A stretch of 64,000 nt of DNA from Algoriphagus halophilus (GTDB taxonomy: Bacteria > Bacteroidota > Bacteroidia > Cytophagales > Cyclobacteriaceae). The translations under genes and the position numbers were made by a program. The stretch spans positions 248,001-312,000 of the forward strand of contig NZ_FSRC01000004.1 of NCBI RefSeq assembly GCF_900129785.1, in the 5' to 3' direction. Under the pieces are notes generated by a model that was not told the origin of the DNA, did no database searches, and saw nothing but the letters and a program-made list of their open reading frames with translations. Below are positions 47,250-64,000 of the stretch, piece by piece (within the stretch, counting starts at the first letter, position 1; each line of letters starts with the position of its first letter).

Positions 47250-48593
47250 TTAGTTGGATTGTGCTAATCTTTCGGGTTTAGTACTGATATTATTCCAGAT
47301 AAATTCCCCGACAGAAAGGCCTTGAGTCACCCCATAATCAATAGCCGGCATATAGTGGATACCTCCATAAAAACGGCTGATAGCAGCCTCTTTATAGGCT
47401 TGACTGAAAGAATCATATTCTCTGATAGGTAGACCGTAAGCCACTTCTGAACTGTCAACTAAATGAAACTCATCCCCGAATAATTGGCCTAAGGTATAAC
47501 CAGCAGCTGAGGAAGCTACGCTATGCCCACTGGTGTGTTCTGGGAAAGGAGGGGTCTGTAAAATCGGTACCCATTCCTCATCGATGTATTGATTGATGTA
47601 AGTTTCCGGTCTGATTAAGTTGCTGCGATATTTTTCATCCCAACAGGAAATAAATGCCTCATTTAGGGCAATTCCAGTCAAGGCAAAAGTTTCTGCGGTA
47701 CCTTTCCAATCTTTGCCGGCCGCTTTGCTGGCTATACCAGCAATGCTCATCCAGTGACCTCCTGGAGTGATTTTTTTCTCAGCAAACATGACATGTCCTT
47801 TGACATTCATTTTATAAGGATTGCAATCCCAGAATAAAGCAATGTTTTTCTGTTCTTCATCTGCCGTAACAGCTGCATCATACACTTCTTTTGCCGCATT
47901 ATAAAACTCTGACCCTGGTTCGCTTGAAAACTTAGGTGGAGCAAGCGGCTTAAACTGGGCTGCTGAATCCAATACAAATGTTCTGATTTTATTCCAATGA
48001 GGCTCAATTGCCTCCATGTAAGCAGGAGGAGTAGGTTCCCAAGTTCCAATTTCCCCTGTTACAGTAAATTTGGGGAAGGAACGACTCTGATGATAATTGT
48101 CTTTAGAAGAATAGGCTTTGATTACATCACCCACTTCTTTACCAAATTCAATAGATGCTTCAAATACATCGTCAGGAATTCCTTTTTCCTTCAGTCCTGC
48201 ATAGGCTGCATCTCTATGCTCGTTCATCATATCTTCAGAGAAAATTAAACCGGTACCTACATGGTAATATGCTGCAAGGGAAGCAAGCGGTAGGTACACC
48301 TCCTCAGAAGGAGTAAAGGTGGTTTTTTCTGATCCATTTAGCTGACCTAATAAGGAAACGTAATTGGGGTCGGTAGCTGCAGCAACCTCATAGGCAGCCA
48401 AGCTTGAATAGGAATAAATCCTTGCAGCCACTGGGGGTGAAAAGATATCATGAATAATGACCTCAGTAATCCTATCCTGTGCTTTGATTAAATAATGGCC
48501 ATCAGTAATGGCATTGGAATAATCGACTTGTTTTTGGCATGAAAGCATGCTAAAGAGCAAGCCTAGGCCAAGTATGGTTTTAAATAAGCGCAT
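47250..48593 (-). CDS. Vanadium-dependent haloperoxidase-like (PAP2 superfamily) lipoprotein
   Basis: A 447-residue lipoprotein from ATG 48593 (an earlier ATG-like start is rejected because it would bury the leader); leader ends LFSMLSC, Cys19. The helical PAP2/haloperoxidase domain shows every vanadate-pocket residue: Lys321 and Arg328 in KYRSNLIRP, Ser355-Gly-His357 in EHTSGHS, Arg407 and the axial His413 in SRFYGGIH. Such proteins oxidise halides with hydrogen peroxide or, in phosphatase relatives, hydrolyse phosphate esters; the sequence cannot separate the two. It stands downstream of two CRTAC1-type genes on the same strand, and the association recurs in the surrounding locus. Confidence 0.85.
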   Translation of the reverse strand: MRLFKTILGLGLLFSMLSCQKQVDYSNAITDGHYLIKAQDRITEVIIHDIFSPPVAARIYSYSSLAAYEVAAATDPNYVSLLGQLNGSEKTTFTPSEEVYLPLASLAAYYHVGTGLIFSEDMMNEHRDAAYAGLKEKGIPDDVFEASIEFGKEVGDVIKAYSSKDNYHQSRSFPKFTVTGEIGTWEPTPPAYMEAIEPHWNKIRTFVLDSAAQFKPLAPPKFSSEPGSEFYNAAKEVYDAAVTADEEQKNIALFWDCNPYKMNVKGHVMFAEKKITPGGHWMSIAGIASKAAGKDWKGTAETFALTGIALNEAFISCWDEKYRSNLIRPETYINQYIDEEWVPILQTPPFPEHTSGHSVASSAAGYTLGQLFGDEFHLVDSSEVAYGLPIREYDSFSQAYKEAAISRFYGGIHYMPAIDYGVTQGLSVGEFIWNNISTKPERLAQSN

Positions 48594-49009
48594 TATGTGA
48601 TTTTCAAATTGGGAATGTTGGGGTACAAATTTAAGGTAATCAGGAGTCAAGCTCAAGTTTTTTATAAATTCCTCAATCGTATTTAGATGGCAAAACTATT
48701 GGAAATAAGGGATTAAGCAAATGGCAAGGCTTAGGTTTTATCCCAATAAACTTTACCTGAATTAGAAGTAGTCAATAAATACTTCTCACTTAACACCTGA
48801 ATTGGAGCTATTCTTCTGATTTCTAACTGACTTGGTATCCTAAAAAACGAAATTATTCTGCTCCAAGTTCCAATTTGGTATTTGCATGTTTGATAAGAAA
48901 GCACGTTATTTTTTCCTAAAATTCTTAAGGGAGTTGATAGACAGACTGTTTTTCCGGAGAAAATCAATTGAGAAATAAGGCAAAAACTGATCGGGTATAT
49001 TGATGGGCA
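48594..49009. other. Gap of about 415 bases without a gene
   Basis: Between the haloperoxidase start and the CRTAC1 stop. It must hold the haloperoxidase promoter. A 78-codon minus frame from a TTG at 48967 has no recognisable features and is not called. Confidence 0.45.
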
Positions 49010-52000
49010 TCACTTGAAATCCCAAATCTCAGCCTGAGCACTATTTTTTACTACCAGTAGTTTTTTGTTTTCAAGAAGTCCAAAAGCTCGGATATCCCCA
49101 TCTAATTTGAGACCATGCGCTGCATTTTTCCAATAATCAAAGGTTCCATCTCCTTTACCTAATAAGACCTCACCATAGCTGGCATCATATTTACCCACTT
49201 CCGGTTTGGCCTGGGATAGGTTTCCTCCCAAAATCAAATCCAAATTTCCATCCTCATTCAAATCTAAAACTGCAATTGCAAAAACGTAGGAACGTTGAGC
49301 TAGGATAGGAAATGGTTTCCAGGAAAAGTTTCCGTTTCCTTCATTCATAAGCACTCCGGATTCTAAATTGTTAACTTCATTGATGATGGACTGATTGACA
49401 ATTTCAGAAGGGAAAATATCTGTTAATGATTCATTATTGTAATTACTATAGCGTATGTATTTCTTTTTGACCGAAGGAATTTGACGCTCTAGTTCATGTT
49501 TTAAAGTATATGGGACTTGAACTCCTCCCACTTCTTGTGTAAAAATTTGTTCGACAGATCCATTTTGATCAAAGTCATTTAAAAACATTTTAACAGGGGA
49601 ATCAGAAGTGATTTTGAATCTTGAATTCAGTCCATTGTTCCCTAGAATCAAATCTGGCAATCCATCGTTATTCAAATCTGCTACTTCCACTGCTCGATAC
49701 CATCCTTTCAAGGTCTCCAGTTCTGGCATTTCGATTTTTTCTAGTCTGCCATTGATGTTTTTCAGGAAGATTGGAGCAGCCCATTCCCCAACTAAAACCA
49801 AATCCTCGTTTCCATCCTGATCCCAATCAAGCACGGTGGCATCGGTAATCATTCCAAGATCTTTGAGGATAGGAGCAAGGGTAGTCGACTCCTCTGTAAA
49901 ATTGCCATTTCCGTCATTGATCCATAGTTGACTGCTCGCATAGGCGCCATAAGTGAAAGGAACCAGCCTTCCCCCTACAAATAGATCTATTGCACCGTCT
50001 TTGTTGATGTCGATTGGTTTGACGGAACTGCTGCTCCCAAAAACGGTAGCAAATCCGGCCGAAGAATTCTTGGTGAAATTTCCTTTTCCGTCATTTAAGT
50101 ATAGCCGGTCTGCCAGATCTATCGATCCAAAACCAGATTCATTGCCTCCAGATGTTACCATCAAGTCCATATCGCCATCTCCATCCGCATCGAAAAATAC
50201 CGCATCGGTATCCTCAGATTGTATATCTTTTACAAATGCATCTTGCGGACTTTCATAGTATTTTCCAGAAGATGTAGCGAGAAATAGTTTCGCAGAGAAG
50301 GTTTTAGCTCCTCCAAAAAAGAGATCCTCCAGCCCATCACCGTTTACATCGGCTTTCGCAAATGCCGGCCCTTCGGTGGAATACATGATATAGGTGAGTC
50401 GGTCCCGATCAAAGTCCACGAATGCATTTTCTTCATGAACGAAGCTTAAGCCCGGGTTTTCAATTTTATGGAATTGTTGGTTGTTAGGTTTTTCAAAGAA
50501 GGGCTTTTCAGAGAGTATTTCTCCCGCATCTTCCCAATTCAATTTGAGTAACTGATCGACTGCTTGATTTTTTAGTTCTGTGTATTTTCCGTCTGGCCAA
50601 AGAATTTCAATAGATTCAACCTTTGTCAACTCCCCTAAACCTATGGTGATTTTCGGGTCTACTGAGGATTGAAAACCCCGGTTTGGCATTTGTTCTGAAT
50701 AGAATATTTTTCCTTCTGCTTTCAGACGGATTTGTGTTCCTATGGCATGGGTATTTTTTTCTTTACCCTCCAGTTGAATTTGAATAAAGTGATGAGTTGG
50801 GTAAATGGATTTTCCCTGATTTTTGAAGATCTGGGAAGGTTGATTGACATTGTTTACCACCAAATCCAGCGTGCCGTCGTTGTTTAAGTCTCCGTATGCG
50901 GCACCATTTGAATGGATTGCTTTACCAAGTCCCCAGTCCTCAGCTATATTTTCAAATTTCAATTCACCCAAATTACGGAATGCGTAATTTGGTATGGGAT
51001 TGATTGGTATGGGGTCGACTAATGCTTTAAAATTCACTCCTTCCTGAGAGATGATTTGACTTTTGGTTTTATCATCGTCAATGAAATTTAAATAATCAAG
51101 GTCCGTAATGTCCTGATAGATGCCATTCGCTACAAAAATATCCCTTAATCCATCATTGTCCATGTCAAATATCAGTGCTCCCCAACTCCAATCCGTAGCC
51201 TCTACATTGCTGAGTCTACCTATTTCGCTGAATGTACCATCCCCATTGTTAAGGTGGAGCATATTGCGGGAAAGCTGATAGTGATACCCGTAGGTCTTGT
51301 TGAATTGGTATTTATCCCAATTCTCAAAAGTAGTGACCTGCTTTAGCCGGGTTTGTGATTCCGGAAGCATGTCAGTCACAAAAATGTCCAAAAGACCGTC
51401 TCCATTGATATCAGCTATGTCAGCCCCCATGGATGCTGCGCTGATAGAGCGCATGGACTTTTCCAATGATTCTGTGAAGGTGCCATCTTGATTATTAATA
51501 TAGAGGTAGTCCTTTTCGAAGAAATCATTGGAAATAAAAATGTCAGGCCAGGTGTCCTGATTGACATCCCCGATGGTAATCCCCAGACCAAAACCGATTA
51601 CGGAACCATAAATGCCGGCTTCTTCGGATACGTCCTGGAATTTTCCATCATCATTCCGATAGAGTTTATCACCTCCAACATTGTCCCGTTTGATCCTTTC
51701 GTTCTGCATTTTGTTGAAAGTACCGATCGCTTGGTAAGAATTATTCAGCAAATAGACATCCAGGTCTCCATCTTTATCATAATCAAAAAATACTGCATGT
51801 GTGGAAAATCCTTGATCAGCCAATCCATAAGCCTCGGCCATTTCTAAGAAGGTCCCATCTCCCTGATTGATAAAAAGTTCGTTTTGTTTGTTATCTCCTG
51901 AAATGTCACCAGAGTTGCAAACATAAATATCCAGAAATCCATCTCCGTCTACATCAGCCATGGAGACCCCGGTGCTCCAGGCACGAGCTCCTGCCACTCC

Positions 52001-52312
52001 AGCTTGTTCTGTGATGTCTTCAAACTTGAATTCTCCTTTATTGAGATAAAGTTTGTTGGGTCCTAAGTTAGCCGTGAAGTACAGGTCAACTAGCCCATCG
52101 TTGTTGATATCTCCGATAGCCACTCCACCGCCGTTATAGTAGTTCCGGTAAGTGAAAATATTGAAATCTTCACTAAAACTTAAGTCATTCCGGAAATCTA
52201 CCCCTGAACTAGTCTTGTCAATTTCCTGAAATAGGGTAGTTTTTTTTTCCGTTTCTTCTTTACAGGAAAAAAGTGAAACTACTAGAATAAGGCTTGCAAT
52301 ATGATTCCTCAT
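49010..52312 (-). CDS. CRTAC1/UnbV-type FG-GAP (VCBS) propeller lipoprotein A
   Basis: A 1100-residue lipoprotein (leader ends VVSLFSC, Cys17). From about residue 60 to 500 it carries a run of FG-GAP/VCBS repeats, each with a DxDxDGxxD calcium loop (for example GDINNDGLVDLY, ADVDGDGFLDIY, DYDKDGDLDVY, ADINGDGLLDI). An ASPIC/UnbV domain follows at about 520-590 (GTQIRLKA, RGFQSSVDP, IGLGE, ILWPDGK). A second propeller half runs to the end (DVNGDGLEDLF, DINKDGAIDLF, DLNNDGLPDLILG). The family is best known from animal CRTAC1 and bacterial UnbV; it probably binds glycans or proteins at the surface. Next to a near-identical-length paralogue and a SusC/D pair. Confidence 0.9.
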   Translation of the reverse strand: MRNHIASLILVVSLFSCKEETEKKTTLFQEIDKTSSGVDFRNDLSFSEDFNIFTYRNYYNGGGVAIGDINNDGLVDLYFTANLGPNKLYLNKGEFKFEDITEQAGVAGARAWSTGVSMADVDGDGFLDIYVCNSGDISGDNKQNELFINQGDGTFLEMAEAYGLADQGFSTHAVFFDYDKDGDLDVYLLNNSYQAIGTFNKMQNERIKRDNVGGDKLYRNDDGKFQDVSEEAGIYGSVIGFGLGITIGDVNQDTWPDIFISNDFFEKDYLYINNQDGTFTESLEKSMRSISAASMGADIADINGDGLLDIFVTDMLPESQTRLKQVTTFENWDKYQFNKTYGYHYQLSRNMLHLNNGDGTFSEIGRLSNVEATDWSWGALIFDMDNDGLRDIFVANGIYQDITDLDYLNFIDDDKTKSQIISQEGVNFKALVDPIPINPIPNYAFRNLGELKFENIAEDWGLGKAIHSNGAAYGDLNNDGTLDLVVNNVNQPSQIFKNQGKSIYPTHHFIQIQLEGKEKNTHAIGTQIRLKAEGKIFYSEQMPNRGFQSSVDPKITIGLGELTKVESIEILWPDGKYTELKNQAVDQLLKLNWEDAGEILSEKPFFEKPNNQQFHKIENPGLSFVHEENAFVDFDRDRLTYIMYSTEGPAFAKADVNGDGLEDLFFGGAKTFSAKLFLATSSGKYYESPQDAFVKDIQSEDTDAVFFDADGDGDMDLMVTSGGNESGFGSIDLADRLYLNDGKGNFTKNSSAGFATVFGSSSSVKPIDINKDGAIDLFVGGRLVPFTYGAYASSQLWINDGNGNFTEESTTLAPILKDLGMITDATVLDWDQDGNEDLVLVGEWAAPIFLKNINGRLEKIEMPELETLKGWYRAVEVADLNNDGLPDLILGNNGLNSRFKITSDSPVKMFLNDFDQNGSVEQIFTQEVGGVQVPYTLKHELERQIPSVKKKYIRYSNYNNESLTDIFPSEIVNQSIINEVNNLESGVLMNEGNGNFSWKPFPILAQRSYVFAIAVLDLNEDGNLDLILGGNLSQAKPEVGKYDASYGEVLLGKGDGTFDYWKNAAHGLKLDGDIRAFGLLENKKLLVVKNSAQAEIWDFK

Positions 52313-52535: not shown

Positions 52536-55500
52536 CTATTCGTGAAATTCAAAAACCAATGGCACATCATTATTTCGTAATACTACTAAATTTGGTCTGT
52601 TTTCAAGATTGATTTGAAGAAAATCCCGGATTTCACCAGGGACAAATAAACCGCTTTCTTCCGGTATTAAGGTTTTCCATTCATTTTTTCCATTTGGTTT
52701 CAATACCCAGCCATAGCTTCCCATCTGACTGCCTAATTCTGGTTTGATCCTACTTTGATTTCCTCCAAAAATCAACAAAGGCTCTCCTGATTCTCCAGTT
52801 ATAGAAGTGATGGAATAGACAGGAGCAGATTGAATTTCAGCAGGTAAATCAGTCATCTTGAAATTACTTTTTCCGTCATTTAGCCATAGGCTAGTTTCAA
52901 GAGTACCAGCTGTTAGAATTAAGGAATTAGCCCAAACAGCTTCAGGGAAAAGATCTTCTAAAGACTTGTTTTGGTAGGATTCGTAGGTCAGTAATTGCTT
53001 TCGCAAAGAGGGGAGTTGACGTAGTAAAGCAGGCTTTAGCACCCAAGGAATTGTTCTTTGATTTTCAAATTGGGAAAGGATTTGATCCAAGGTTCCATTT
53101 TGATCAAAGTCATTCAGGATCATTCTGAGTTGAGAGTTGCTATTGCTATGAAGTCGGGAGTTTAAGCCATGATTCCCAGCTAGAATATCAGGATGGCCAT
53201 CCATATTGACATCTGAAACAAATAGGCAATTCCAAAGACCACTTGAATTTTCAAAACCAAAATCGGAAGTTTTTTCAATTAATTTATTTCCCTCAAAACT
53301 AAATATCCGAATGGACATCCATTCTCCTGCCACAATTATTTCGAGTTTCCCATCTCCATCCAAATCGGCCAAATCTCCGCTAGTCAGCATCCCAATTTTG
53401 GAAAGTTCAGGGTTTAGACTCTGAGAAATTTGCTTAAAACGTCCCATTCCATCATTCTCCCAGACTTGCAGGCCAGTCGGGATTCCATATCCAAATGGTA
53501 TTGCTCGGCTACCGACGATCAAATCCATATCTCCGTCTTCATCAAAATCTAGAGAAAGAAGAAAGGCGGTTGGGTTTGAAGAAAAGAATTGAGGTGACTT
53601 TTGGAAGTTTCCAGTTCCATCATTCAGATAAAGTCGGTCCGAATAAGCTGGCGAATTATCACCAAACTCGATTCCCCCACTTCCTACCAGTAAATCAGGC
53701 TTTCCATCACCGTTAGCATCAAAAAAATGTGCGGTGACATCTTCGGAAATTGCATCCGAATCAAAGAGTTCTTCTTGGTGGGATATAAATTGACCTGTTG
53801 GATTTTGGATCAGCAAGATAGAGGTTTGTTCTTTCGCCCCTGGAATGAAAATATCTTCCAAACCATCTCCATTCACATCTGCTTTGGCGGCTTTTGGTCC
53901 CTCATTGCTGATCATCCAAAATCGTAAGCGATCACGATCAAAATCAATAAAGTTGCTCTCCTGATGCTGAAACGGAAATTTTGTGTCTTTTTGAATGAAT
54001 AGCGTTCCTGGATTTTTCTCTAGGTTTGGGTTTATTTTGTCCTCCTCTTTTGGGATAAGTTTCAGTGCCTGATTGGCTTGAACATCTCTGATAATTTGGA
54101 TTTTACCGTCTGGCCAAAAAATCTCTAGGGAATCGAGTTTTTCAATAGTACCCAAGCCAAAATGCATCCGAGGATCAACCGAAGACATGTAACCTTTGAC
54201 AGGTTGATACTCCTGAATGAATTTTTGATCGGATGCATAGGCGATGACTTTGGTGCCAAATTCCTGACCTAGCTCTATGCTCAGGTAGTTTCCGATATTT
54301 TTGTCGGAACTGGTATTTCGGTAAATGAAAGCTCGGTCATTTAAATTATTTATTACTAAGTCAAGATCTCCATCATTATCTAAATCCCCATAAGCTGATC
54401 CAGTGCTGAAAGTAAGCTGGTCTAAACCCAAATTTTGAGCAAGGTTTTCAAAATTCCAGTTGCCTTGATTTTTAAAGAGAAAGTTTTGCTGGGGGGTAGA
54501 AGGAAATGCATCAATCATTTTGGTCAAAAGGATGGAGTCTTTCTGAAAACCTTGAATTTTCTCCTGATTGTTGACATAGAAATCTACGAAATCAAAATCA
54601 GTCAAATCTTTCACAATTCCATTAGTGACTAATATATCCTTCAGTCCGTCATTGTCCATGTCGAAAATCAAGGCTCCCCAACTCCAGTCTGTCGCTTCTA
54701 ATCCGGCCATTCGACTAACTTCTGCAAAAATGGGGGTTTGAGTTCCAGGTCTGAATCCTAAGTTTCTTTGAAGGGTATTTCTTGTGAATTGTTGATGGTA
54801 TCCAGCCTTAATATTAGATTGAAATTTGTCCCATTCTTCAAAAGGAGTTTTCGTTTTGACACGAGAAAGTTCCTTTGGCAGCATTTCTGTGACAAAAATA
54901 TCTGGCCGAGTATCATTGTCCAGATCGGCAATATCAGCTCCCATACTTCCCAAGCTGATCTCAGGCAGAAGATCTGGCAGAACTTCAGAAAATGTTCCAT
55001 CCTGATTGTTCAGGTAGAGATAGTCCCGTTCAAAAAAATCATTGGAAACATATAAATCTGGCCAATTATCATCGTTTAGGTCAGCTACAGTGACTCCAAG
55101 ACCATATCCTATATTACTCCCGTATATTCCAGCCTCCTCAGATACATCCGTGAAGATATCTCCATCGTTTCTGAATAACTTATTTCCTCCTTCGGGATCA
55201 CGGATTTCACGTTGCCCAACCCTAAGGTCATAAATCCCTATGGATCTTGCCGAATTACTGAGTAGGTACATGTCCAAATCTCCATCTTTGTCAAAATCAA
55301 AGAAGACAGCATGCTGGCTCAGTCCTTTTTCAGCAATTCCGTACTCTTTTGATTTTTCTGAAAAAGTGAGGTTATTATTATTGATAAAAAGTTCATTATG
55401 GCGTTTATCTCCACCTGGAGGGCCCGATTTGCAAATGTAAAGGTCCAATAAACCATCCCCGTTTACATCAGCCATACTTACACCGGTAGTCCAATATCCA

Positions 55501-55826
55501 GTTGAGCTAAGTCCAGATTGGTCGGTAATGTCTTTAAATTTAAGCCCCCCTTGGTTCAGATATAGTTTGTTAGAAGTTTGATTTCCGGCTAGGAAAATAT
55601 CAATTAAACCATCATTATTAATATCGCCTAATGCTACTCCTGCTCCGTTGTAAAAATTACGAAAAGTGTAGGGATTTACTTTTTCGGTGTAAGTAAGATC
55701 ATTTCTGAAAGATATCCCTGAATCTTCCTCTGAAAGAAGTTGGAAAAGTACGTCATTACTTTTCTCTTCCTTTTGGCAAGAAAGGCACGAAATAAATAAA
55801 ATAATAAGGAGGGTTTTTTGCTTCAT
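52536..55826 (-). CDS. CRTAC1/UnbV-type FG-GAP (VCBS) propeller lipoprotein B
   Basis: A 1096-residue lipoprotein from ATG 55826 (a TTG at 55832 is rejected); the leader ends ISCLSC, Cys17. It has the same layout as protein A: FG-GAP loops (GDINNDGLIDIF, ADVNGDGLLDLY, DFDKDGDLDMY, GDLDNDGDLDLV), an ASPIC/UnbV domain near 525-595 (FGTKVIAY, GYMSSVDPRMHFGLG, IFWPDGK), then a second propeller half (ADVNGDGLEDIF, DANGDGKPDLL, DFDEDGDMDLI, ADLDGDGKLEII). The two share long identical blocks (for instance EATDWSWGALIFDMDNDGL), so this is a tandem duplication with divergence. Spacing to protein A is 223 bases. Ligand unknown. Confidence 0.9.
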   Translation of the reverse strand: MKQKTLLIILFISCLSCQKEEKSNDVLFQLLSEEDSGISFRNDLTYTEKVNPYTFRNFYNGAGVALGDINNDGLIDIFLAGNQTSNKLYLNQGGLKFKDITDQSGLSSTGYWTTGVSMADVNGDGLLDLYICKSGPPGGDKRHNELFINNNNLTFSEKSKEYGIAEKGLSQHAVFFDFDKDGDLDMYLLSNSARSIGIYDLRVGQREIRDPEGGNKLFRNDGDIFTDVSEEAGIYGSNIGYGLGVTVADLNDDNWPDLYVSNDFFERDYLYLNNQDGTFSEVLPDLLPEISLGSMGADIADLDNDTRPDIFVTEMLPKELSRVKTKTPFEEWDKFQSNIKAGYHQQFTRNTLQRNLGFRPGTQTPIFAEVSRMAGLEATDWSWGALIFDMDNDGLKDILVTNGIVKDLTDFDFVDFYVNNQEKIQGFQKDSILLTKMIDAFPSTPQQNFLFKNQGNWNFENLAQNLGLDQLTFSTGSAYGDLDNDGDLDLVINNLNDRAFIYRNTSSDKNIGNYLSIELGQEFGTKVIAYASDQKFIQEYQPVKGYMSSVDPRMHFGLGTIEKLDSLEIFWPDGKIQIIRDVQANQALKLIPKEEDKINPNLEKNPGTLFIQKDTKFPFQHQESNFIDFDRDRLRFWMISNEGPKAAKADVNGDGLEDIFIPGAKEQTSILLIQNPTGQFISHQEELFDSDAISEDVTAHFFDANGDGKPDLLVGSGGIEFGDNSPAYSDRLYLNDGTGNFQKSPQFFSSNPTAFLLSLDFDEDGDMDLIVGSRAIPFGYGIPTGLQVWENDGMGRFKQISQSLNPELSKIGMLTSGDLADLDGDGKLEIIVAGEWMSIRIFSFEGNKLIEKTSDFGFENSSGLWNCLFVSDVNMDGHPDILAGNHGLNSRLHSNSNSQLRMILNDFDQNGTLDQILSQFENQRTIPWVLKPALLRQLPSLRKQLLTYESYQNKSLEDLFPEAVWANSLILTAGTLETSLWLNDGKSNFKMTDLPAEIQSAPVYSITSITGESGEPLLIFGGNQSRIKPELGSQMGSYGWVLKPNGKNEWKTLIPEESGLFVPGEIRDFLQINLENRPNLVVLRNNDVPLVFEFHE

Positions 55827-56769
55827 TGACAATGTTTAGAAAGCGGGGAGTGAACAAAAGAACATTTCCTTTTTAAAAGAGCTCAGATTCTATTGCTTAC
55901 TTAAGTTTTGAATCAGGTTAGAAATTCATTTTTAATTGCCTGGACTTATTTGCATGATTAATTGCTTTAGTTTTTTATGAATCTACCAGTTTGTTTGATT
56001 TTGCCAAAGCGAGAGTAACATTTTACTCGATAAGAAAATTTAGAAGAGGGTTTCCTAGTTTATAAAATCAACTTCTCTTCCTTGGAAAAAGGTAAAGGGC
56101 TTTTAAAGTCTTCAATACTTTTAAATCCAATATCAGAATTATTTCCATTGCCATAAATTAAAAGCGGAGTTCTGACTGTGGTGAATTTGTTTTTTGAAGT
56201 TAAATCATACATCAAAACAACTGGTTTAGTAAGGATTATGAACATTTGAAGAACCAATTTTAGTTTTTAATGCTACTTTATTTTCGTGGCCCTTGACTAA
56301 TTTATTCTAGTTAGGAAGGCTAACTATTTTAAACTTATTCAGAAATAAAATCAAGATCATTAATTTTTTTTAGGAAGGGTGTTATGGATGGTTCTATTGC
56401 TAATTAAATATTTTTACAATTATCTTTTGTTTTGTTTTAGATATGCAAAATTATTTTTTAAAATTGCTTCGAGGCATGTAAACTCAAAACTTCAATAAAA
56501 AATTGTCAAAAGCTTTGTTTTAAAGCGGAAATTTTTTTCACCAGTTTTGATTTTAAATGATTTAGTTTTTTGAATTCAGAAATCATTTTTGATTTCATAA
56601 AACCAAAATTGATTGCTTTCAGGCCTTAGGTCTGAGGGTAAGATGCCAAAAAGAAAACCAATTTGTTTTACTTATTTATTTCAGGGAAAATTTCTGGAAT
56701 AGGGAGGTAGAACAAAAAATAAGGATTGCTAAAAGAGCTATCAAACAATTAACCATAACCTAAAATCAC
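55827..56769. other. Long divergent intergenic region (0.94 kb) of the SusC/CRTAC1 locus
   Basis: Separates the minus-strand CRTAC1 pair from the plus-strand susC. It must contain promoters for both directions. It is strongly AT-rich. A minus-strand frame at 56060-56242 (61 codons from an ATG) ends in a plausible protein-like tail (GFKSIEDFKSPLPFSKEEK) and may be a gene fragment, but I do not recognise it. No clear operator or regulator gene is present; the controlling sigma or anti-sigma pair is not next to susC. Confidence 0.5.
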
Positions 56770-59736
56770 ATGAAAAAACAAGTAAAACTGGTTTTCATGT
56801 TATTCTTGTCTTTTGCTTTATGCATATGTCAGGTGACATATGCACAGCAGACTAGGGTAACAGGAAAAGTAACAGATGCTGCTACTGGGGAGGGAATCCC
56901 GGGTGTAAGTATTCTGATAAGTGGTACCACGACTGGAGTGGTGACAGATTTAGATGGGAGCTATTCAATCGAGGCTAGTCCAACTGATATTTTACGAATC
57001 TCATTTATCGGTTATACTACCGTAGAGGAGGAGGTCGGAAACCGGACCGTTATCGATGTTGCACTAGCTGAAAACATACAAGCGCTTACAGAGGTGGTAG
57101 TCGTGGGGTATGGTACCCAAGAGAAGAAAGAGATTACCAGTGCCGTAACTAGTGTCAAATCAGAGGATTTTAATCAAGGTACTGTTAATGACCCCGCACA
57201 ATTGCTACAAGGAAAAGTTGCTGGTCTAAACATTGCCAGACCAGGGGGAAATCCTAACTCCGGATTTAATGTACGATTAAGAGGAATCTCCTCAATTGGA
57301 GAAAATGCTTCACCACTTGTAGTTATCGATGGTGTTATTGGAGCCTCATTGAGTACAGTAGACCCTAATGATATCGAGTCCATGGATGTATTGAAAGATG
57401 GATCTGCTGCGGCTATTTACGGTACCAGAGGATCGGCTGGTGTAATCTTAGTTACTACAAAAAAAGGTAGAAAGGGTAGATCAGTCGTTGAGTTTAACAG
57501 TAGTGTAGCTGTTGAAAATGTTGCCAGGACTATTAGTGTCATGAATGCAGAAGAGTACAAGGCGATACCTAACTCAAGAGATCTCGGAGGTAGTACCGAC
57601 TGGTTCGATGAGGTGACAAATACAGGACTTAGTTTTATAAACAACCTTTCACTTGGTGGAGGTAATGAAAGTACCAGCTACCGAGTTTCGATCAACTCCC
57701 GAAATGTGGACGGTGTTGGTATTAATTCTGGTTTTGACCAATTAAATGCCAGATTGAGCTTGACTCAAAGAGCTTTAAAAGACAAGGCAACATTTACTGT
57801 AAATATTTCCAATACAATAATTGATAGAGAATTTGGTAACGAAAACTCTTTTAGATATGCTATCATAAGCAATCCAACGCTTCCAGTTTTTGATCCAAAC
57901 CCTCAAAGTCCTGATTTTGGAGGTTATTCAGAGCGAGATATTTTTGACTGGTTCAATCCTGTGTCCATTGCGGAACAGAATATTGCAGATGGTCGAGATA
58001 ACAGACTATTAGCCAGTATCCGTGGAGAATATAATTTTACGAGCAAGTTTAGCGGTGCATTATTTTATTCCACTCAGAGAGAAACCGATTGGAGAGGATC
58101 TTATTCCCCAAAGACTGCTAAATTCGGTGGTGGATTTGGTAGAAATGGTTTGGCCACTATTGTAAATAATGAGAGGCTAAATGATCTATTCGAAGCCACA
58201 TTGAATTATTACGAAAACGTGAATAAACTTGGAATGGCTTTCTTGGCAGGATATTCTTACCAGGAATTCTTTAACCAGGGTGATTTTACACAAGCGGGAA
58301 ATTTCTTAACAGACGCATTTACTTATAATAACATCGGGGCGGCGCTTGACTTCGCTAATGGATTAGCGTCAGTTTCAAGTTATGCCAACTCAAACAAATT
58401 GGTAGCATTCTTTGGACGGGCTAACTTCAATTATGATGATACCTACTTGCTATCTCTAAGTGCCAGATATGAAGGTTCCACTAGATTCGGAGCTAACAAT
58501 AAATGGGGTTTGTTTCCAGCAGTTAGTGTGGGTGTAAACATCGCTAACTTGGTAGACCTTACCGGTGTTAGTTCAATGAAATTCAGAGCCAGTTATGGTA
58601 GAACTGGTACACAGCCAGGAGAATCCTATTTATCCTTGTTAAGATTTGGACGTCAGGGTAACTTCTTCTATAATGGACAATTTGTGCCATCATATGGACC
58701 GGTATCCAACGCCAACCCAGATTTGTCATGGGAAACAAAGGATGAATACAACGTAGGATTGGACTTTGTGATTTTAAATAACAAGTTAGATGGTGCGATA
58801 GACTATTATACCAGAGTGACAACAGGTATGATCCTACCAATCAACGTACCCGTACCACCAAACCTTTTCCCTACGACCCAATTGAACATCGGTGAAATGT
58901 CAAATTCAGGTTTGGAGGTTATGTTAAATTATAGAGCCATTCAAAATGCTGATTTCAGATGGACTACTGGAGTCAATTTCTCCACTTTAAAGACAAATCT
59001 TAGAAGCTTGTCTGCAGGAGATTTGAGTTTCGGAGAAGTTAATTACCGCTCTAATTTTGGATCTCCAGGTCAGAACCTAACGCAATTGATCCGAATCCAA
59101 GAAAATGGACCTTTAGGACAAATTTGGGGACCAATTCAAGTAGGTGTCAGCGATGATGGAAGTCCGATCATGAAGGTGATTGATGGCACAGCTGTAGATG
59201 ATGAAGGGAACCCTGTTTATTGTAACTGTAACGATGACAGAACTCAATTAGGTACCGCATATCCTACTTTAAATTTTGGTTTCAATAACTCCTTAACTTA
59301 CAAGAATTGGGATTTGAACTTCTTCTTTAGAGGATCATTTGGTCATTATCTGATCAACAGCTACAGAGGTTTCTATGAAAACACTGAAAGTACAACTGTT
59401 CAAAACTGGAATATTGTAAATACTAAATATTTTGATCCGAATATTACCAAAGCAGAATATAACAGCACTCATGTTGAAAAAGCTGATTTTGTGGTATTGG
59501 ACAATGCAACCCTTGGCTATAACTTCAATGTCCAGCCAGGCAAAGCAGTCGGAAGGATTAGGGCTTATGTTTCTGTACAGAATCCCTTCATGTTTACCGG
59601 ATATACCGGTGTAGATCCTGAGGTAAGGTATGGAGATTCAGAGCAAAACAATGATCCTCTTGCACCGGGTATTGAAAGAAGGGCAACTTATTTCACCACT
59701 ACGATCACTACTCTAGGCCTTAATCTAAGTTTCTAA
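56770..59736 (+). CDS. SusC/RagA-type TonB-linked outer-membrane transporter
   Basis: A 988-residue protein. Signal peptide (FMLFLSFALCICQVTYA), then a carboxypeptidase-regulatory-like domain (about 28-105; VTGKVTDAATGEGIPGVS, FIGYTTVEEEV), a TonB-box/plug region (about 108-225; VVVGYGTQEKKE, GSAAAIYGTRGSAGVI), and a ~760-residue beta-barrel. It ends TTTITTLGLNLSF, with the terminal aromatic typical of outer-membrane barrels. It imports a large substrate, usually a glycan or peptide, with the SusD lipoprotein as its lid, powered by TonB. SusD follows 17 bases later. There is no STN domain, so anti-sigma signalling is unlikely. Confidence 0.93.
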   Translation: MKKQVKLVFMLFLSFALCICQVTYAQQTRVTGKVTDAATGEGIPGVSILISGTTTGVVTDLDGSYSIEASPTDILRISFIGYTTVEEEVGNRTVIDVALAENIQALTEVVVVGYGTQEKKEITSAVTSVKSEDFNQGTVNDPAQLLQGKVAGLNIARPGGNPNSGFNVRLRGISSIGENASPLVVIDGVIGASLSTVDPNDIESMDVLKDGSAAAIYGTRGSAGVILVTTKKGRKGRSVVEFNSSVAVENVARTISVMNAEEYKAIPNSRDLGGSTDWFDEVTNTGLSFINNLSLGGGNESTSYRVSINSRNVDGVGINSGFDQLNARLSLTQRALKDKATFTVNISNTIIDREFGNENSFRYAIISNPTLPVFDPNPQSPDFGGYSERDIFDWFNPVSIAEQNIADGRDNRLLASIRGEYNFTSKFSGALFYSTQRETDWRGSYSPKTAKFGGGFGRNGLATIVNNERLNDLFEATLNYYENVNKLGMAFLAGYSYQEFFNQGDFTQAGNFLTDAFTYNNIGAALDFANGLASVSSYANSNKLVAFFGRANFNYDDTYLLSLSARYEGSTRFGANNKWGLFPAVSVGVNIANLVDLTGVSSMKFRASYGRTGTQPGESYLSLLRFGRQGNFFYNGQFVPSYGPVSNANPDLSWETKDEYNVGLDFVILNNKLDGAIDYYTRVTTGMILPINVPVPPNLFPTTQLNIGEMSNSGLEVMLNYRAIQNADFRWTTGVNFSTLKTNLRSLSAGDLSFGEVNYRSNFGSPGQNLTQLIRIQENGPLGQIWGPIQVGVSDDGSPIMKVIDGTAVDDEGNPVYCNCNDDRTQLGTAYPTLNFGFNNSLTYKNWDLNFFFRGSFGHYLINSYRGFYENTESTTVQNWNIVNTKYFDPNITKAEYNSTHVEKADFVVLDNATLGYNFNVQPGKAVGRIRAYVSVQNPFMFTGYTGVDPEVRYGDSEQNNDPLAPGIERRATYFTTTITTLGLNLSF

Positions 59737-59753: not shown

Positions 59754-61388
59754 ATGAAAAAAATAATAAATATTCGATACTTCTTGATTGGCCTGGGAAT
59801 GAGTTACTTCGCTTCGTCCTGCGTAGACTTAGATGAAGAAGTATATAGTGCTGTTACAGCTGATAACTTTTTCCAAACAAATGAAGAGTTTATTTCTGCA
59901 CTTGGACAAGCATATACATCCCTAGGAGGGCTGGGTAACCACTCCGGACTTTGGTCCATCAATGAAATTGCTTCAGACGAAATTGTTGTTTCCCACAAAG
60001 GAGGTGACTGGTTTGACGGAGGAGTTCTATTGCAATTACACCAGCATGAATTCAAAAGTGATAATCCATTCTTTCAAAATTCTTGGAATTTCCTTTTTGG
60101 AGGGATCAATACTTGTAATCGATTGATCTTTTCTTTTGAAACTCTGGATAACCCTAATTCTGCAGCATTTATAGCTGAACTCAGGGCATTACGAGCGCTT
60201 TATTATTACTGGGCTCTGGATGCTTTTGGAAATATTCCAATCGTAACAGACTTCACTGATGTGGAAGCTCCTAGTACCAAACCTCGGCAAGAAGTTTATG
60301 ATTTTGTGTTGAGTGAACTCAATGAAATCATTCCACTGCTTCCAGTAGCCAAAGATGGTACAACTTATGGAAGGATGACCAAATGGAGTGCTTTAATGAT
60401 TAGAATGAAGCTTTACCTCAATGCAGAGGTATATACAGGTACTCCTCAATGGGCTCTTGCTGCGGCAGATGCTTCAGAAATTATCAATAGTGGTGTTTAC
60501 AGTTTGATGCCAACTTACAGTAACAATTTTGTAATCAACAACAGTCAATCCACTGAAAATATCTTTGTATATCCTTATGACAAGGTTTTCGCAGGTGGTT
60601 TTAACTGGGTAATGATGACATTGCATATTGTAAGTCAATCTACCTTCAATCTTACCCAACAGCCTTGGAATGGCTATCAGACAGTTGAAGAGTTTTATAA
60701 CTCTTATGTTGATCCTGAAAAAAATCCAGGTACTCAAGGTCCTGTATGGAAGGGATTGGCATTGGAACAATCTACCGGAACAATTGATGGAAGATTAAGT
60801 AATTTCTTGGTTGGACCTCAATTCAGATCAGATGGAACAGTATTGGAAGATCCAGGAGTTGAGCCAACAGACCCAACAGGAAGAAATGGGGATCCAAATG
60901 GCCCACCGCTTACATTCATGCCTTACCTTAATGAAATTTCCCCTGGAGGGTTGCGTCAAGCAGGAGCCCGAATTGCGAAATATGAATTTGAAATGGGAGG
61001 CACAAATAACATGAGCAATGACTTTGTGATTTTCAGACTATCTGATGCCATCCTTTCGCTTGCTGAAGCCAAGTTTAGAATGGGAGAAACCACAGAGGCA
61101 TTGGCCTTGGTGAATCAAATTAGAGCCAGAGCTGGTAACCTAGATCCATTTACTACACTGACCGAAGAAAATCTGTTTGAGGAAAGAGGTAGAGAAATGT
61201 TTGTTGAAATGACAAGAAGACAGGATTTAATCCGATTCAAAAAGTATGGAGAAGCTTGGTGGCCTTTTGAAGGAATGAACAGACCTAAGCAAGTACACTC
61301 TCCAGGAAGTTACTTGGAGTTGTTCCCAATTCCACAGCCACAAATACTTGCGAATCCAAAATTACAACAAAATCCAGGGTATAATTAA
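59754..61388 (+). CDS. SusD/RagB-type surface lipoprotein
   Basis: A 544-residue lipoprotein, leader ending YFASSC (Cys23). The SusD fold is recognised by its TPR-like helices and hallmarks: NNFFQTNEEF-type start (TADNFFQTNEEF), ALRALYYYWALDAFGNIP (about 145-162), KWSALMIRMKLYLNAEVYTG, LSLAEAKFRMGE, ERGREMFVEMTRRQDLIRF, and the end LFPIPQPQILANPKLQQNPGY. It caps the SusC barrel and binds the substrate at the surface. With SusC it forms the transporter core of this locus. A terminator follows. Confidence 0.93.
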   Translation: MKKIINIRYFLIGLGMSYFASSCVDLDEEVYSAVTADNFFQTNEEFISALGQAYTSLGGLGNHSGLWSINEIASDEIVVSHKGGDWFDGGVLLQLHQHEFKSDNPFFQNSWNFLFGGINTCNRLIFSFETLDNPNSAAFIAELRALRALYYYWALDAFGNIPIVTDFTDVEAPSTKPRQEVYDFVLSELNEIIPLLPVAKDGTTYGRMTKWSALMIRMKLYLNAEVYTGTPQWALAAADASEIINSGVYSLMPTYSNNFVINNSQSTENIFVYPYDKVFAGGFNWVMMTLHIVSQSTFNLTQQPWNGYQTVEEFYNSYVDPEKNPGTQGPVWKGLALEQSTGTIDGRLSNFLVGPQFRSDGTVLEDPGVEPTDPTGRNGDPNGPPLTFMPYLNEISPGGLRQAGARIAKYEFEMGGTNNMSNDFVIFRLSDAILSLAEAKFRMGETTEALALVNQIRARAGNLDPFTTLTEENLFEERGREMFVEMTRRQDLIRFKKYGEAWWPFEGMNRPKQVHSPGSYLELFPIPQPQILANPKLQQNPGYN

Positions 61389-61409
61389 TCAGTATTTGAT
61401 ATAAACTAA

Positions 61410-61442
61410 AAAGCAGGCTGAGGTTTCAGCTTGCTTTTTTTT
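61410..61442 (+). terminator. Terminator after the SusC/SusD pair
   Basis: AAGCAGGCTGA pairs with TCAGCTTGCTT (one wobble) around a 4-base loop and is followed by nine T. It starts 22 bases after the susD stop. Confidence 0.87.
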
Positions 61443-61568
61443 TAAGAGCTTGTTAACCAAGTTTCCTTAAAAAAAGATTGTATCATAGATTCAAATTCAT
61501 TTAATTTCTTCGCCCAGTAAAACACTTGCTTGAAAAAAGTTCCTTAGTTGCTTATTACCGATTTATCA

Positions 61569-62171
61569 ATGCTTAGATATTTAACCAAAGTATTCTCCAC
61601 TTTAATTCTCATCTTACTCATTCAGAGTTGTGATTCTTCATTCTTTAATTCTTCTGAGGAAAATATATCGGAAACCGATAGTTTGTTTTTAGGCTTTTAT
61701 TTAGGAATGCCCCAAAAAGACTTTTTTGATCACTGTACCGACTTAAACAAACAGCAAAAAATCACCCAAGGCCCAGGGGGATCTACCAATGTAGAGTATA
61801 GAATTGTCGATGAATATGACAGCGAAGTCAGCATGCGGTTTTTCCCGACCTTCATTGACGAAAAGATATTTGAAATGCCTGTCATCTATTCCTATGTGGC
61901 TTGGGCACCTTGGAATAGGCAGTATTGGGCTGAAAACCTTCTTCCTAAAGTTTTGGAAAAATACAAAATGACCTACGGTGATGATTTCCAATTACTCAAT
62001 CATCCTACCCAAGGGAAAGTATATTATAAAATTGATGGGAAAAGAAGAATTAACTTGTTTGTCAAAGATGAACAATTTGTTCAAGCAGTTTTTACTGATT
62101 TGAAGGTAGAAAAGAGGCTTAATGAAGAATTTGAAAATAGCCAGTCCCAAGAACAAATTCCATCGAATTAA
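61569..62171 (+). CDS. Lipoprotein of unknown function
   Basis: A 200-residue lipoprotein from ATG 61569 (a TTG at 61548 is rejected); leader ends LLIQSC, Cys21. The mature part shows a GFYLGMPQKDFFDHCTDLN segment, a beta-rich middle (MRFFPTFIDEKIFEMP), and a basic C-terminus. I do not recognise the family. It lies between susD and the third CRTAC1 gene on the same strand, 103 bases before the latter, so it is probably a member of this locus, perhaps co-transcribed with that gene. Confidence 0.8.
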   Translation: MLRYLTKVFSTLILILLIQSCDSSFFNSSEENISETDSLFLGFYLGMPQKDFFDHCTDLNKQQKITQGPGGSTNVEYRIVDEYDSEVSMRFFPTFIDEKIFEMPVIYSYVAWAPWNRQYWAENLLPKVLEKYKMTYGDDFQLLNHPTQGKVYYKIDGKRRINLFVKDEQFVQAVFTDLKVEKRLNEEFENSQSQEQIPSN

Positions 62172-62274
62172 GCCAATTATAGCTCATGTTGTGAAGCAAT
62201 TGTCTGTAGATTGTCCTATGTAGGTAAAGTGTAGCTAGGGCATTCCAAGTGGTTGACGATACAAATTATAATCC

Positions 62275-64000
62275 ATGAAAAATGCCTGTTTTCATTTTTT
62301 GATTTTTACGCTATTTATTCTGACTTCATGTTCAAAAAAAACTGATTTACAGGAACAGCAATCACTTTTTGAAAGTCTTCCTCCTCAAAAAACAGGTGTT
62401 GATTTTATTAACACCCTGAATGAAACTGAGGAGTTTAATATTATTGAATACCTGTACTTTTACAATGGAGGTGGAGTAGCTGCAGGAGATATTAATAATG
62501 ATGGGCTGATTGATCTCTATTTTTCTTCTAATCAGGGACCCAATAAACTTTATTTGAATAAAGGGGGGATTGTTTTTGAAGATATTACCCTGAAGGCAGG
62601 ACTGGCATCTGAAGGACCCTGGAAAACGGGGGTTACCATGGCCGATATCAACGGAGATGGACTGTTGGATATTTACGTCTCTAGGTTGGGGAATTGGAAA
62701 ACAGTGGTAGGGAGAAATGAACTATATATTAACAACGGTGACCTGACTTTTACAGAAAGTGCTGAAGAATATGGTTTGGCCTTCCAAGGATTTAGCACTC
62801 AAGCCGCATTTTTTGATTTTGACAAGGATGGTGATTTGGATATGTACCTGCTCAACCATGCAGTACATACGGAGAGAAGTTATGGAGGGGCTGAATCTAG
62901 GTATTTTGACGATGGGTTGGCTGGGGATAGGTTATATCGAAACAACTTAGAAAGTGGAGAAAAGAAGTTTACAGGAATTACACCACAAGCAGGAATTTTC
63001 TCCAGTAAAATCGGATATGGCTTGGGAATTGGGATTTCTGATATCAATAACGATGGATGGCCTGATATCTATGTATCAAATGATTTTAATGAGAATGATT
63101 ACCTATATATCAACCAAAAGGATGGAACCTTCAAAGAACAAATTTCTTCCGGAGTCAACTACAGCAGTAGGTTCTCAATGGGAAGTGATTTTTCAGATTT
63201 TAATAATGATGGGTGGATTGACTTTATCACCATGGATATGTTGCCTAGGGATGAAATCATTCAAAAAATGTCAGCTGGAGAAGACAGCGAGGAAGTATAC
63301 CAACTCAAATTAGGGTTTGGATTTGAAAGGCAAGTGTCTAGAAATAGTCTTCAATTAAATAATGCCAATGGTACATTTTCGGAAATTGGGCAATACTCCG
63401 GCGTTTACGCTACAGATTGGAGTTGGGCGGCATTGTTTGGTGATTTTGACAATGATGGCTGGAAAGATTTATTTGTTACCAATGGAATAGTTCGAAGACC
63501 AAATGATTTGGATTATATGAATTTTGTCACCAATCCTGAAATTGAAGATGGTTTACAAAACAAGCCGAATATCAGTGACCTTGAGCTTGCGGGAAAAATG
63601 CCTCCTGGAGATGTCGGTAATTTTATTTTTAGAAATAATGGAGATCTGACATTCAAGGATGTTTCACAAGAATGGGGTCTTTCTGGGAATGGGATCTCTA
63701 ATGGAGCCATCTATGCAGACTTAGATAATGATGGGGATTTGGATTTGGTGATTAACAATATCAATCAACCTGCTGGAATTTATGAAAATAGATTAGGGCA
63801 TTTCTCTGACAGTAGTAAAACCGTAAATTATTTAAAAGTGAGGTTTGATGGTCTGGGTTTAAACAAATTTGGAATTGGAAGTAGAGTGGAGCTATACTAT
63901 AAAGATCAGATCCAAGTTCAGGAAAATTTTACAAGCAGAGGATTTCAGTCATCCATTGCTCCTGAGGTCCATTTTGGTTTTGATGGTGTGCAGTACCTGG
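62275..64000 (+). CDS. CRTAC1/UnbV-type FG-GAP propeller lipoprotein C (5' part)
   Basis: Open from the ATG at 62275 to the window end without a stop (575 codons visible). Leader MKNACFHFLIFTLFILTSC, lipidated Cys19. FG-GAP/VCBS calcium loops follow (GDINNDGLIDLY, ADINGDGLLDIY, DFDKDGDLDMY, SDINNDGWPDIY, DLDNDGDLDLV). EATDWSWGAL of proteins A and B is here ATDWSWAALF. The ASPIC/UnbV domain begins at the edge (GSRVELYY, RGFQSSIAPEVHFGF). So this is a third, more divergent member of the family at one locus. The missing part should hold the second propeller half. Confidence 0.9.
   Translation, partial: MKNACFHFLIFTLFILTSCSKKTDLQEQQSLFESLPPQKTGVDFINTLNETEEFNIIEYLYFYNGGGVAAGDINNDGLIDLYFSSNQGPNKLYLNKGGIVFEDITLKAGLASEGPWKTGVTMADINGDGLLDIYVSRLGNWKTVVGRNELYINNGDLTFTESAEEYGLAFQGFSTQAAFFDFDKDGDLDMYLLNHAVHTERSYGGAESRYFDDGLAGDRLYRNNLESGEKKFTGITPQAGIFSSKIGYGLGIGISDINNDGWPDIYVSNDFNENDYLYINQKDGTFKEQISSGVNYSSRFSMGSDFSDFNNDGWIDFITMDMLPRDEIIQKMSAGEDSEEVYQLKLGFGFERQVSRNSLQLNNANGTFSEIGQYSGVYATDWSWAALFGDFDNDGWKDLFVTNGIVRRPNDLDYMNFVTNPEIEDGLQNKPNISDLELAGKMPPGDVGNFIFRNNGDLTFKDVSQEWGLSGNGISNGAIYADLDNDGDLDLVINNINQPAGIYENRLGHFSDSSKTVNYLKVRFDGLGLNKFGIGSRVELYYKDQIQVQENFTSRGFQSSIAPEVHFGFDGVQYL

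What the first reader, a model, noticed from the sequence alone, without database searches (positions are those of the whole stretch)
47250..64000. Surface locus combining a vanadium-haloperoxidase-like lipoprotein, three CRTAC1/UnbV propeller lipoproteins and a SusC/SusD transporter
All recognisable products are envelope proteins: one PAP2/haloperoxidase with an intact vanadate pocket, three large CRTAC1-type lipoproteins, SusC, SusD and an unrecognised lipoprotein. There is no glycoside hydrolase, polysaccharide lyase or sulfatase in this block, so it is not a standard polysaccharide-utilisation locus. The set suggests capture and oxidative (halogenating) or dephosphorylating processing of a substrate at the surface before uptake. 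The parts are known families; their combination as one system is inference.
Basis: partly seen in the sequence, partly recalled or inferred. Interest (0 to 1): 0.72.

Follow-up and report, generated by a model that had tools for sequence, protein, structure and literature searches.

The report
Sugar-uptake locus with a vanadium haloperoxidase
A surface gene cluster of a marine-type bacterium joins a sugar importer, large propeller-shaped surface proteins and a vanadium enzyme of the iodine-oxidising kind; similar teams recur across the phylum, often beside genes for splitting small glucose sugars, which gives this enzyme family a possible nutritional setting that can be tested.

Summary
The window is from an Algoriphagus-like genome. 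It holds a vanadium-haloperoxidase (VHPO) lipoprotein 52% identical to the crystallised Zobellia iodoperoxidase zgVIPO1, with eight of eight active-site positions kept; three CRTAC1/UnbV lipoproteins; SusC; SusD; and an orphan lipoprotein. The grouping is not accidental: UnbV genes lie near 61 of 83 close VHPO relatives in a phylum sample (about 0.02 expected per locus), and a gene 99% identical to zgVIPO1 sits behind three UnbV genes. Kojibiose-hydrolase-type GH65 genes are within 14 kb of a VHPO in 13 of 17 cases, GH37 trehalase genes within 10 kb in 9 of 29. Against one fixed system: in seven SusD relatives outside the genus, none has VHPO nearby and four have UnbV, so SusCD-UnbV looks like the core and VHPO a frequent addition. 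Best reading: an alpha-glucoside uptake module with surface propellers and an anchored VHPO that works on halide and peroxide. The VHPO's role is inference, and the own genome has no GH37 or GH65, so the substrate is inferred by kinship. New variant of a known kind.

The parts
42022..43803 (+). Flank: GH15 family protein with trehalase-like N-terminal domain (TREH_N)
   Evidence: PF00723 163.8 bits and PF19291 51.4 bits, both over cut-off; NCBIfam archaeal TreH1 282.6 bits, under its cut-off of 820; no PDB relative at E 0.001. In 20 of 80 named VHPO loci.
44872..47097 (-). Flank: bifunctional trehalose-6-phosphate synthase/phosphatase
   Evidence: NF011071 1001.8 bits, cut-off 634. In 21 of 80 named VHPO loci but only 2 of 20 TPS genes of the 62 sampled genomes lie near a VHPO: weak evidence of a functional link.
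47250..48593 (-). Vanadium-dependent haloperoxidase (zgVIPO1 group), predicted lipoprotein (ORF from a TTG at 48656; likely start ATG at 48593)
   Evidence: 4cit E 1.1e-141; 52% identity over 422 columns and 8 of 8 active-site positions identical; lipobox MLSC
49010..52312 (-). UnbV/CRTAC1 lipoprotein A (1100 aa): CRTAC1-like half plus a second propeller
52536..55832 (-). UnbV/CRTAC1 lipoprotein B (1098 aa; TTG-started ORF, ATG two codons later)
   Evidence: UnbV_ASPIC 77.3 bits; lipobox-like pattern and 11 DxDxD[GN]-type motifs
55833..56769 (.). Intergenic region between the two divergent transcription units
   Evidence: sequence; consensus promoter scan of 55700-56900: 9 found against 4.9 (sd 2.7) in shuffles, not decisive
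56770..59736 (+). SusC/RagA-type TonB-dependent transporter
   Evidence: TIGR04056 659.7 bits, cut-off 368
59754..61388 (+). SusD/RagB lipoprotein
   Evidence: PF07980 92.9 bits, PF14322 38.9 bits, over cut-off; lipobox ASSC
61548..62171 (+). Orphan lipoprotein (ORF from TTG; probable ATG at 61569), conserved in related UnbV loci
   Evidence: no Pfam/NCBIfam family; Cys28 invariant in 30 of 30 aligned homologues; model pLDDT 84.9 without a clear fold match
62275..64000 (+). UnbV/CRTAC1 lipoprotein C, cut by the window end (complete CDS ends at 65625 in the contig)
   Evidence: UnbV_ASPIC 37.1 bits on the cut protein; complete 1116-aa frame in L117

Best explanation
The block is an outer-membrane nutrient module: SusC-SusD import a small alpha-glucoside (trehalose- or kojibiose-like, osmolyte-type glucosides included), the CRTAC1/UnbV double-propeller lipoproteins, rich in calcium-type motifs, act as surface partners of SusCD that hold or present the ligand, and a zgVIPO1-type vanadium haloperoxidase is anchored beside them. 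SusCD-UnbV is the core; VHPO is a frequent, inherited addition, widespread in Algoriphagus. In relatives the imported glucoside is then split by GH65 kojibiose-hydrolase-type, GH37 trehalase or GH13 enzymes. The VHPO most likely oxidises iodide or bromide with peroxide at the surface, using up peroxide and making hypohalite while the cell feeds. Shown here: gene content, conserved order, linkage statistics, active-site conservation, CRTAC1 fold of one model. Inferred: the substrate (from relatives, not from this genome), the complex with SusCD, and the role of the VHPO.
For: UnbV in 61 of 83 close VHPO loci against 4 of 22 distant ones, expected about 0.02 per locus; SusD in 36 of the 83, 34 of them with UnbV (a lower bound as the stretch often ends before SusD); common order SusC-SusD-UnbV(1-3)-VHPO. 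SusC/D found upstream in 8 of 8 loci whose flank was extended. A gene 424 of 429 residues identical to zgVIPO1 (L162) lies directly behind three UnbV genes. Kojibiose-hydrolase-type GH65: 10 of 17 within 3 kb and 13 of 17 within 14 kb of a VHPO, expected 0.05 and 0.23; full-length GH37: 9 of 29 within 10 kb, expected 0.27; one GH65 per genus, 8 of 12. These GH genes are in 15 of the 83 close VHPO loci, 14 with UnbV, and in 0 of 22 distant ones; in 13 of 28 loci with two or more UnbV against 2 of 55 others. NCBIfam names the tested GH65 kojibiose hydrolase (1109 bits, cut-off 800). The 13 SusDs that I labelled GH-linked all score 142-301 bits against the window SusD. Own-genome UnbV: 6 of 6 lie beside SusC/D or VHPO.
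Against: The own genome has 0 GH37 and 0 GH65 genes. The adjacent TPS is near VHPO in only 2 of 20 cases. In seven SusD relatives (34-58%) of other families no VHPO lies in the stretch fetched, and three lack UnbV too; one of them (G042, SusD 58%, with SusC, two UnbV and the orphan lipoprotein) is a genome with no VHPO match at all. 22 of 83 close VHPO loci have no UnbV. G009 has VHPO and one UnbV but no near SusD relative. GH-linked VHPO rows do not form one clade (8 label changes; 16.1 in shuffles). SusDs without a GH label score as high (Algoriphagus variants 414-437 bits; L196 with one UnbV 268; L154 without UnbV 171), so the SusD score does not single out the GH-linked type. Only 54 of 88 related VHPO frames show a lipobox-like pattern near the start. 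No complex, ligand or activity could be tested. Linkage P values treat related genomes as independent.
Confidence: 0.45

Rival explanations
1. Iodine or halide system: the VHPO oxidises iodide and the UnbV/SusCD proteins take up or hold the oxidised or organo-halogen product, as proposed in part for iodine-accumulating marine flavobacteria; sugar genes only supply glucose from which peroxide is made.
For: The closest studied relative is an iodoperoxidase encoded in the same kind of locus. Arenibacter C-21 takes up iodine in a glucose-, oxygen- and calcium-dependent way and has at least five zgVIPO1 homologues (PMC5064120, whole text read). UnbV A-C carry 11-13 calcium-type motifs each.
Against: SusCD-UnbV occurs without VHPO and with GH65/GH37/GH13/MFS genes, which points to sugar import; I recognised no peroxide-forming oxidase among the recurrent neighbours, but looked only at cluster representatives and sequence starts.
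Confidence: 0.18
2. Dephosphorylation before uptake: the PAP2-fold enzyme acts as a surface phosphatase on a phosphorylated glucoside or glycerol-type head group.
For: Weak Pfam PAP2 match; shared vanadate/phosphate pocket of the superfamily (recalled); glycerol kinase- and aquaporin-like genes in L158 and L255 and glycerophosphodiesterase-like genes in L255 and L256 (named by eye).
Against: 52% identity to an enzyme studied as an iodoperoxidase, with W, K, R, S, G, H, R, H all kept.
Confidence: 0.12
3. Shield: the VHPO is a separate peroxide or hypohalite defence of the outer membrane that shares place and perhaps regulation with a feeding locus used on algae.
For: Zobellia vIPO3 is up-regulated on a brown alga in a study that also reports induced antioxidant functions (PMC9296495, passages); VHPO occurs without UnbV (22 of 83) and SusCD-UnbV without VHPO.
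Against: Orientation-conserved linkage of VHPO to UnbV across families.
Confidence: 0.2

Closest known systems
Zobellia galactanivorans vanadium iodoperoxidase zgVIPO1 (PDB 4cit, 4usz)
   Same: 52% identical over 422 columns, same eight active-site residues; a gene 424 of 429 identical to it lies behind three UnbV genes
   Different: Halide specificity of the window enzyme unknown; in that genome SusC/D lies about 11 kb from the UnbV genes with other genes between
CRTAC1 / ASPIC-UnbV family (PDB 9etn)
   Different: The bacterial proteins carry a lipobox and a second propeller (610-1100 in A)
SusCD polysaccharide-utilisation loci, e.g. FjDexUL with kojibiose hydrolase FjGH65A (PMC10316084, PMC8626586; passages read)
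   Same: SusC-SusD pair; relatives carry FjGH65A-type GH65 (7fe3, 763.5 bits) and LacI-type, beta-PGM and GH13 genes
   Different: No carbohydrate-active enzyme in the block; UnbV and VHPO are present, which FjDexUL lacks by its published gene list
BtuB-BtuG vitamin B12 uptake (PMC10404256, passages read)
   Same: A beta-propeller surface lipoprotein serving a TonB-dependent transporter
   Different: Here a SusD is present as well; no complex shown; kinship of the propellers not tested

Membership tests
Vanadium-dependent haloperoxidase (zgVIPO1 group) | Conserved vanadate-binding and catalytic residues (W, K, R, S, G, H, R, H; motif recalled) | tested here: met
   8 of 8 identical to 4cit
Vanadium-dependent haloperoxidase (zgVIPO1 group) | Full-length homology to a member of known activity | tested here: met
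   residues 37-460 of 468, E 1.1e-141
Vanadium-dependent haloperoxidase (zgVIPO1 group) | Halide oxidation by peroxide with vanadate | not testable with these tools
   needs purified enzyme
CRTAC1 / UnbV_ASPIC | UnbV_ASPIC domain with FG-GAP repeats over cut-off | tested here: met
   71.9, 77.3 and 37.1 bits (last on the cut protein), cut-off 23.4; six sites in own genome
CRTAC1 / UnbV_ASPIC | CRTAC1 fold | tested here: met
SusCD polysaccharide-utilisation locus | Adjacent SusC and SusD | tested here: met
   TIGR04056 and PF07980 over cut-off
SusCD polysaccharide-utilisation locus | Carbohydrate-active enzymes within the locus | tested here: not met
   none in 47250-64000; GH15 at 42022-43803 lies beyond TPS and an amidase gene; present in relatives
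SusCD polysaccharide-utilisation locus | Linked sugar-sensing regulator | tested here: not met
   none recognised among block genes; LacI-type in relatives
Trehalose/kojibiose utilisation locus | GH37 or kojibiose-hydrolase GH65 | tested here: not met
   0 and 0 in the own genome; present in 15 of 83 related VHPO loci
BtuG-like transporter lid | Stable complex of propeller lipoprotein with the TonB-dependent transporter | not testable with these tools
   no complex prediction or co-purification possible

The most novel reading that the evidence does not exclude
SusCD, two to three CRTAC1/UnbV double propellers and a vanadium iodoperoxidase form one surface machine in which halide oxidation is part of alpha-glucoside acquisition itself: peroxide made from or around the sugar is turned into hypohalite at the transporter, linking sugar feeding and iodine turnover in marine Bacteroidota.
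Probability: 0.15. Interest if true: 0.8.

Novelty: new variant of a known kind. Interest (0 to 1): 0.55.

Why it matters
The natural role of bacterial vanadium iodoperoxidases is unclear (recalled) although one is crystallised. A recurrent partnership with CRTAC1-type surface propellers, SusCD and genes for splitting trehalose or kojibiose makes that role testable by growth, deletion and co-purification, and gives a bacterial setting to CRTAC1-type proteins. It could also tie iodine cycling on algae and in sediments to sugar uptake.

Tried and rejected
Trehalose genes next door as direct proof of substrate: rejected, because TPS is near VHPO in only 2 of 20 cases and the window's GH15 falls under the NCBIfam trehalase cut-off.

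SusC counts from my first scans (45 of 80 named loci; 46 of 83 phylum loci) were dropped as too loose: they take in distant TonB receptors. Stricter counts are 31 of 80 (SusC 150 bits or more, or SusD) and 36 of 83 (SusD).

A Bacteroidota-type promoter pattern (TTTG-N17-23-TAnnTTTG, recalled): 6 matches in the window against 4.08 expected, one at 48691-48721 before the VHPO; not significant. The sigma-70-type scan of the divergent region is not decisive.

Simple inversion of the collinear Algoriphagus operon as the only origin of the divergent layout: not supported, because SusC, SusD, LP and UnbV C are only about 31-45% identical to the collinear version while UnbV A/B and VHPO are about 58-81%, so a cassette exchange is more likely (inference).

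Print status: the listings showed me no paper that joins haloperoxidase with UnbV/VCBS and SusD in one locus; one search found 312 papers by three of four terms, of which 20 were listed. The library holds open papers only, and the key paper on zgVIPO1 (Fournier 2014) could not be read, so an earlier mention is possible.

Full report
WHAT IS THERE. The window lies at C4:248001-312000 of a 4.98-Mb, 8-contig genome. Its VHPO is 95% identical to that of Algoriphagus lutimaris, so the host is an Algoriphagus or close kin. On the minus strand run UnbV B (52536-55832), UnbV A (49010-52312) and VHPO (47250-48593). Divergently on the plus strand run SusC (56770-59736), SusD (59754-61388), an orphan lipoprotein (61548-62171) and UnbV C (62275 to 65625, beyond the window). 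A lipobox-like pattern was found in VHPO, UnbV A-C and SusD (it also fires, probably wrongly, in SusC); it misses the orphan lipoprotein, whose Cys28 is invariant in 30 of 30 aligned sequences. Of 88 related VHPO frames 54 show the pattern (starts are mechanical).

THE HALOPEROXIDASE. The only strong PDB relative is 4cit/4usz, E 1.1e-141. On an alignment of 113 VHPO rows the eight active-site positions of the window protein equal those of 4cit; over the 113 rows the Lys, the first Arg and the last His are invariant, the others kept in 105-111 rows (the positions were chosen from recalled motifs). One genome of the sample (G236) encodes a VHPO 424 of 429 residues identical to 4cit, so it is a Zobellia or close kin (the name is inferred); there the gene lies directly behind three UnbV genes.

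IS THE SET REAL. Named genomes: of 80 loci around close VHPO relatives (153 candidates confirmed, the best 80 kept), 76 hold an UnbV-type gene and 73 have one directly upstream of VHPO on the same strand; 31 hold SusC or SusD in the flank by a strict rule, 30 of these with UnbV (two or three 3.3-kb UnbV genes often fill the 10 kb). The four without UnbV are L017, L061, L081 and L084; several contigs are short. Phylum sample: 62 of 296 genomes (at least 95% complete) have a VHPO at E 1e-20 or better, 106 matches (at most five candidates per genome were scored, so copies are undercounted). I fetched up to 20 kb around the 105 matches other than the window's own. Of the 83 closer ones (over 210 bits), 61 have UnbV in the stretch, 48 directly upstream on the same strand by the gap rule, 36 have SusD and 34 both; of the 22 distant ones (under 201 bits) 4 have UnbV and 2 SusD. 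UnbV density in these genomes gives about 0.02 expected per stretch. I extended eight loci upstream (G236, G349, G188, G184, G033, G240, G105, G172): all eight have SusC-SusD upstream, though in G236 and G184 other genes lie between.

SusD of the window was sought in 58 relatives and set against VHPO places. Window-type SusD (82-95%) occurs in 12 relatives: 9 share a contig with the VHPO ortholog at 4-21 kb, 2 are on other contigs of fragmented assemblies, 1 (G002) has no VHPO ortholog. A variant SusD (43-50%) occurs in 22 Algoriphagus relatives: 17 about 12 kb from VHPO, 4 on other contigs, 1 (G002) without. No case was seen of these two SusD types far from VHPO on one contig within the genus; weaker SusD hits (28-40%) do lie elsewhere. 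Outside the genus the result goes the other way: seven SusD relatives (34-58%; G042, G038, G057, G039, two in G052, one in G045) were fetched; none has a VHPO in the stretch, four have UnbV (G042, G039, one of G052, G045), three have neither. G042, whose SusD is 58% identical and which keeps SusC, two UnbV and the orphan lipoprotein, has no VHPO match at all. Two further SusD hits of that set (G045:C23, G052:C606) and one in G047 were not fetched. Conversely G009, a one-contig Algoriphagus, has VHPO, one UnbV and TPS but neither SusD type. So SusCD-UnbV looks like the core and VHPO like a common partner that can be absent.

WHAT TRAVELS WITH IT. Clustering neighbour ORFs of the 83 loci brought out, besides ordinary neighbours, a GH65 (10 loci), a GH37 trehalase (9), an MFS transporter (8) and kinases. 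NCBIfam calls the tested GH65 kojibiose hydrolase (1109 bits, cut-off 800); the tested GH37 passes two trehalase subfamily cut-offs but not the TreA equivalog one. In the 62 genomes there are 17 such GH65 genes (told from 26 others of 757-814 aa, probably phosphorylases, by frame length of about 670-740 aa and score), 10 within 3 kb and 3 more within 14 kb of a VHPO; the four others are in G093, G346, G192 and G180, of which those of G346 and G192 lie next to a GH37 and SusC/D, in G346 also two UnbV. There are 29 full-length GH37 genes, 9 within 10 kb. Expected by uniform placement: 0.05, 0.23 and 0.27. These P values ignore kinship; with one GH65 per genus the count is 8 of 12 against 0.16 expected. 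Further members seen in single lineages: LacI-type regulator, beta-phosphoglucomutase (over cut-off), the longer GH65, GH13 enzymes and a sucrose-phosphorylase-like GH13 (321 bits, cut-off 334); glycerol kinase and aquaporin-like genes were named by eye only.

TRANSFER TO THE WINDOW. The own genome has no GH37 and no GH65, so the substrate must be argued by kinship. All 13 SusDs that I labelled GH-linked (by hand; two of them, L255 and L256, for the longer GH65 and GH13) score 142-301 bits against the window SusD, while most SusDs of single-UnbV loci score 84 or less; but L196 (one UnbV) scores 268, L157 340 and L154 (no UnbV) 171, and Algoriphagus variants 414-437. This places the window's SusD in a group that includes the GH-linked ones; it does not prove the substrate. 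GH65/GH37 genes are in 13 of 28 loci with two or more UnbV and 2 of 55 others; the window has three UnbV. The adjacent GH15 and TPS genes fit the theme but are weak evidence. In the VHPO tree the GH-linked rows fall in several clades (8 label changes, shuffled mean 16.1), among them Cyclobacteriaceae rows near the window's clade, by a fork of moderate support (88, drawn open).

HOW IT MOST LIKELY WORKS. SusC-SusD import an alpha-glucoside; UnbV propellers serve as surface partners, by analogy with BtuG on BtuB (PMC10404256, passages). The VHPO, by kinship to an iodoperoxidase, oxidises halide with peroxide. Why this is useful during sugar uptake is not shown. A lead is Arenibacter C-21, whose iodine uptake needs glucose, oxygen and calcium and was ascribed to a glucose oxidase and a haloperoxidase (PMC5064120, whole text); Zobellia vIPO3 is induced on a brown alga (PMC9296495, passages).

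VERDICT. Observation right; 'one system' well supported inside Algoriphagus and for UnbV-VHPO across the phylum, less so for SusCD with VHPO outside the genus; 'not a polysaccharide locus' true of the block, but the module belongs to the sugar-uptake world in relatives; enzyme role open.

Noticed in passing
G000:C1:907000-926999 (L118): A second, 44%-identical VHPO with an UnbV gene beside it and a SusC/SusD pair nearby in the same genome.
   Followed up: partly
L119 and L120 (G000:C2 and C3): SusC-SusD-UnbV trios without VHPO in the same genome; L120 also has an FG-GAP protein related to that of L207.
   Followed up: partly
L190, L192, L197, L202, L207, L210, L215: A second locus type: SusC-SusD-single UnbV-VHPO with an extra FG-GAP protein (a CxxCH motif seen in L207) and no GH65/GH37 found in the stretch.
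   Followed up: partly
L163:8346-9245 and relatives in 12 phylum loci: A protein with a GyrI-like small-molecule-binding domain (tested in L163) lies beside or near VHPO, role unknown.
   Followed up: no
window 56770-65625 against L007-L086: The SusC-SusD-lipoprotein-UnbV C half looks like an exchangeable cassette: about 70-95% identical in some Algoriphagus, only about 31-45% in others whose UnbV A/B and VHPO stay about 58-81% identical.
   Followed up: partly
L256:5309-8312: SusC of this relative (G188) is split into two overlapping frames, a frameshift or sequencing error.
   Followed up: no
window 20000-30000: A stretch of lower GC (31-36% against about 40%), possibly acquired; not examined.
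   Followed up: no
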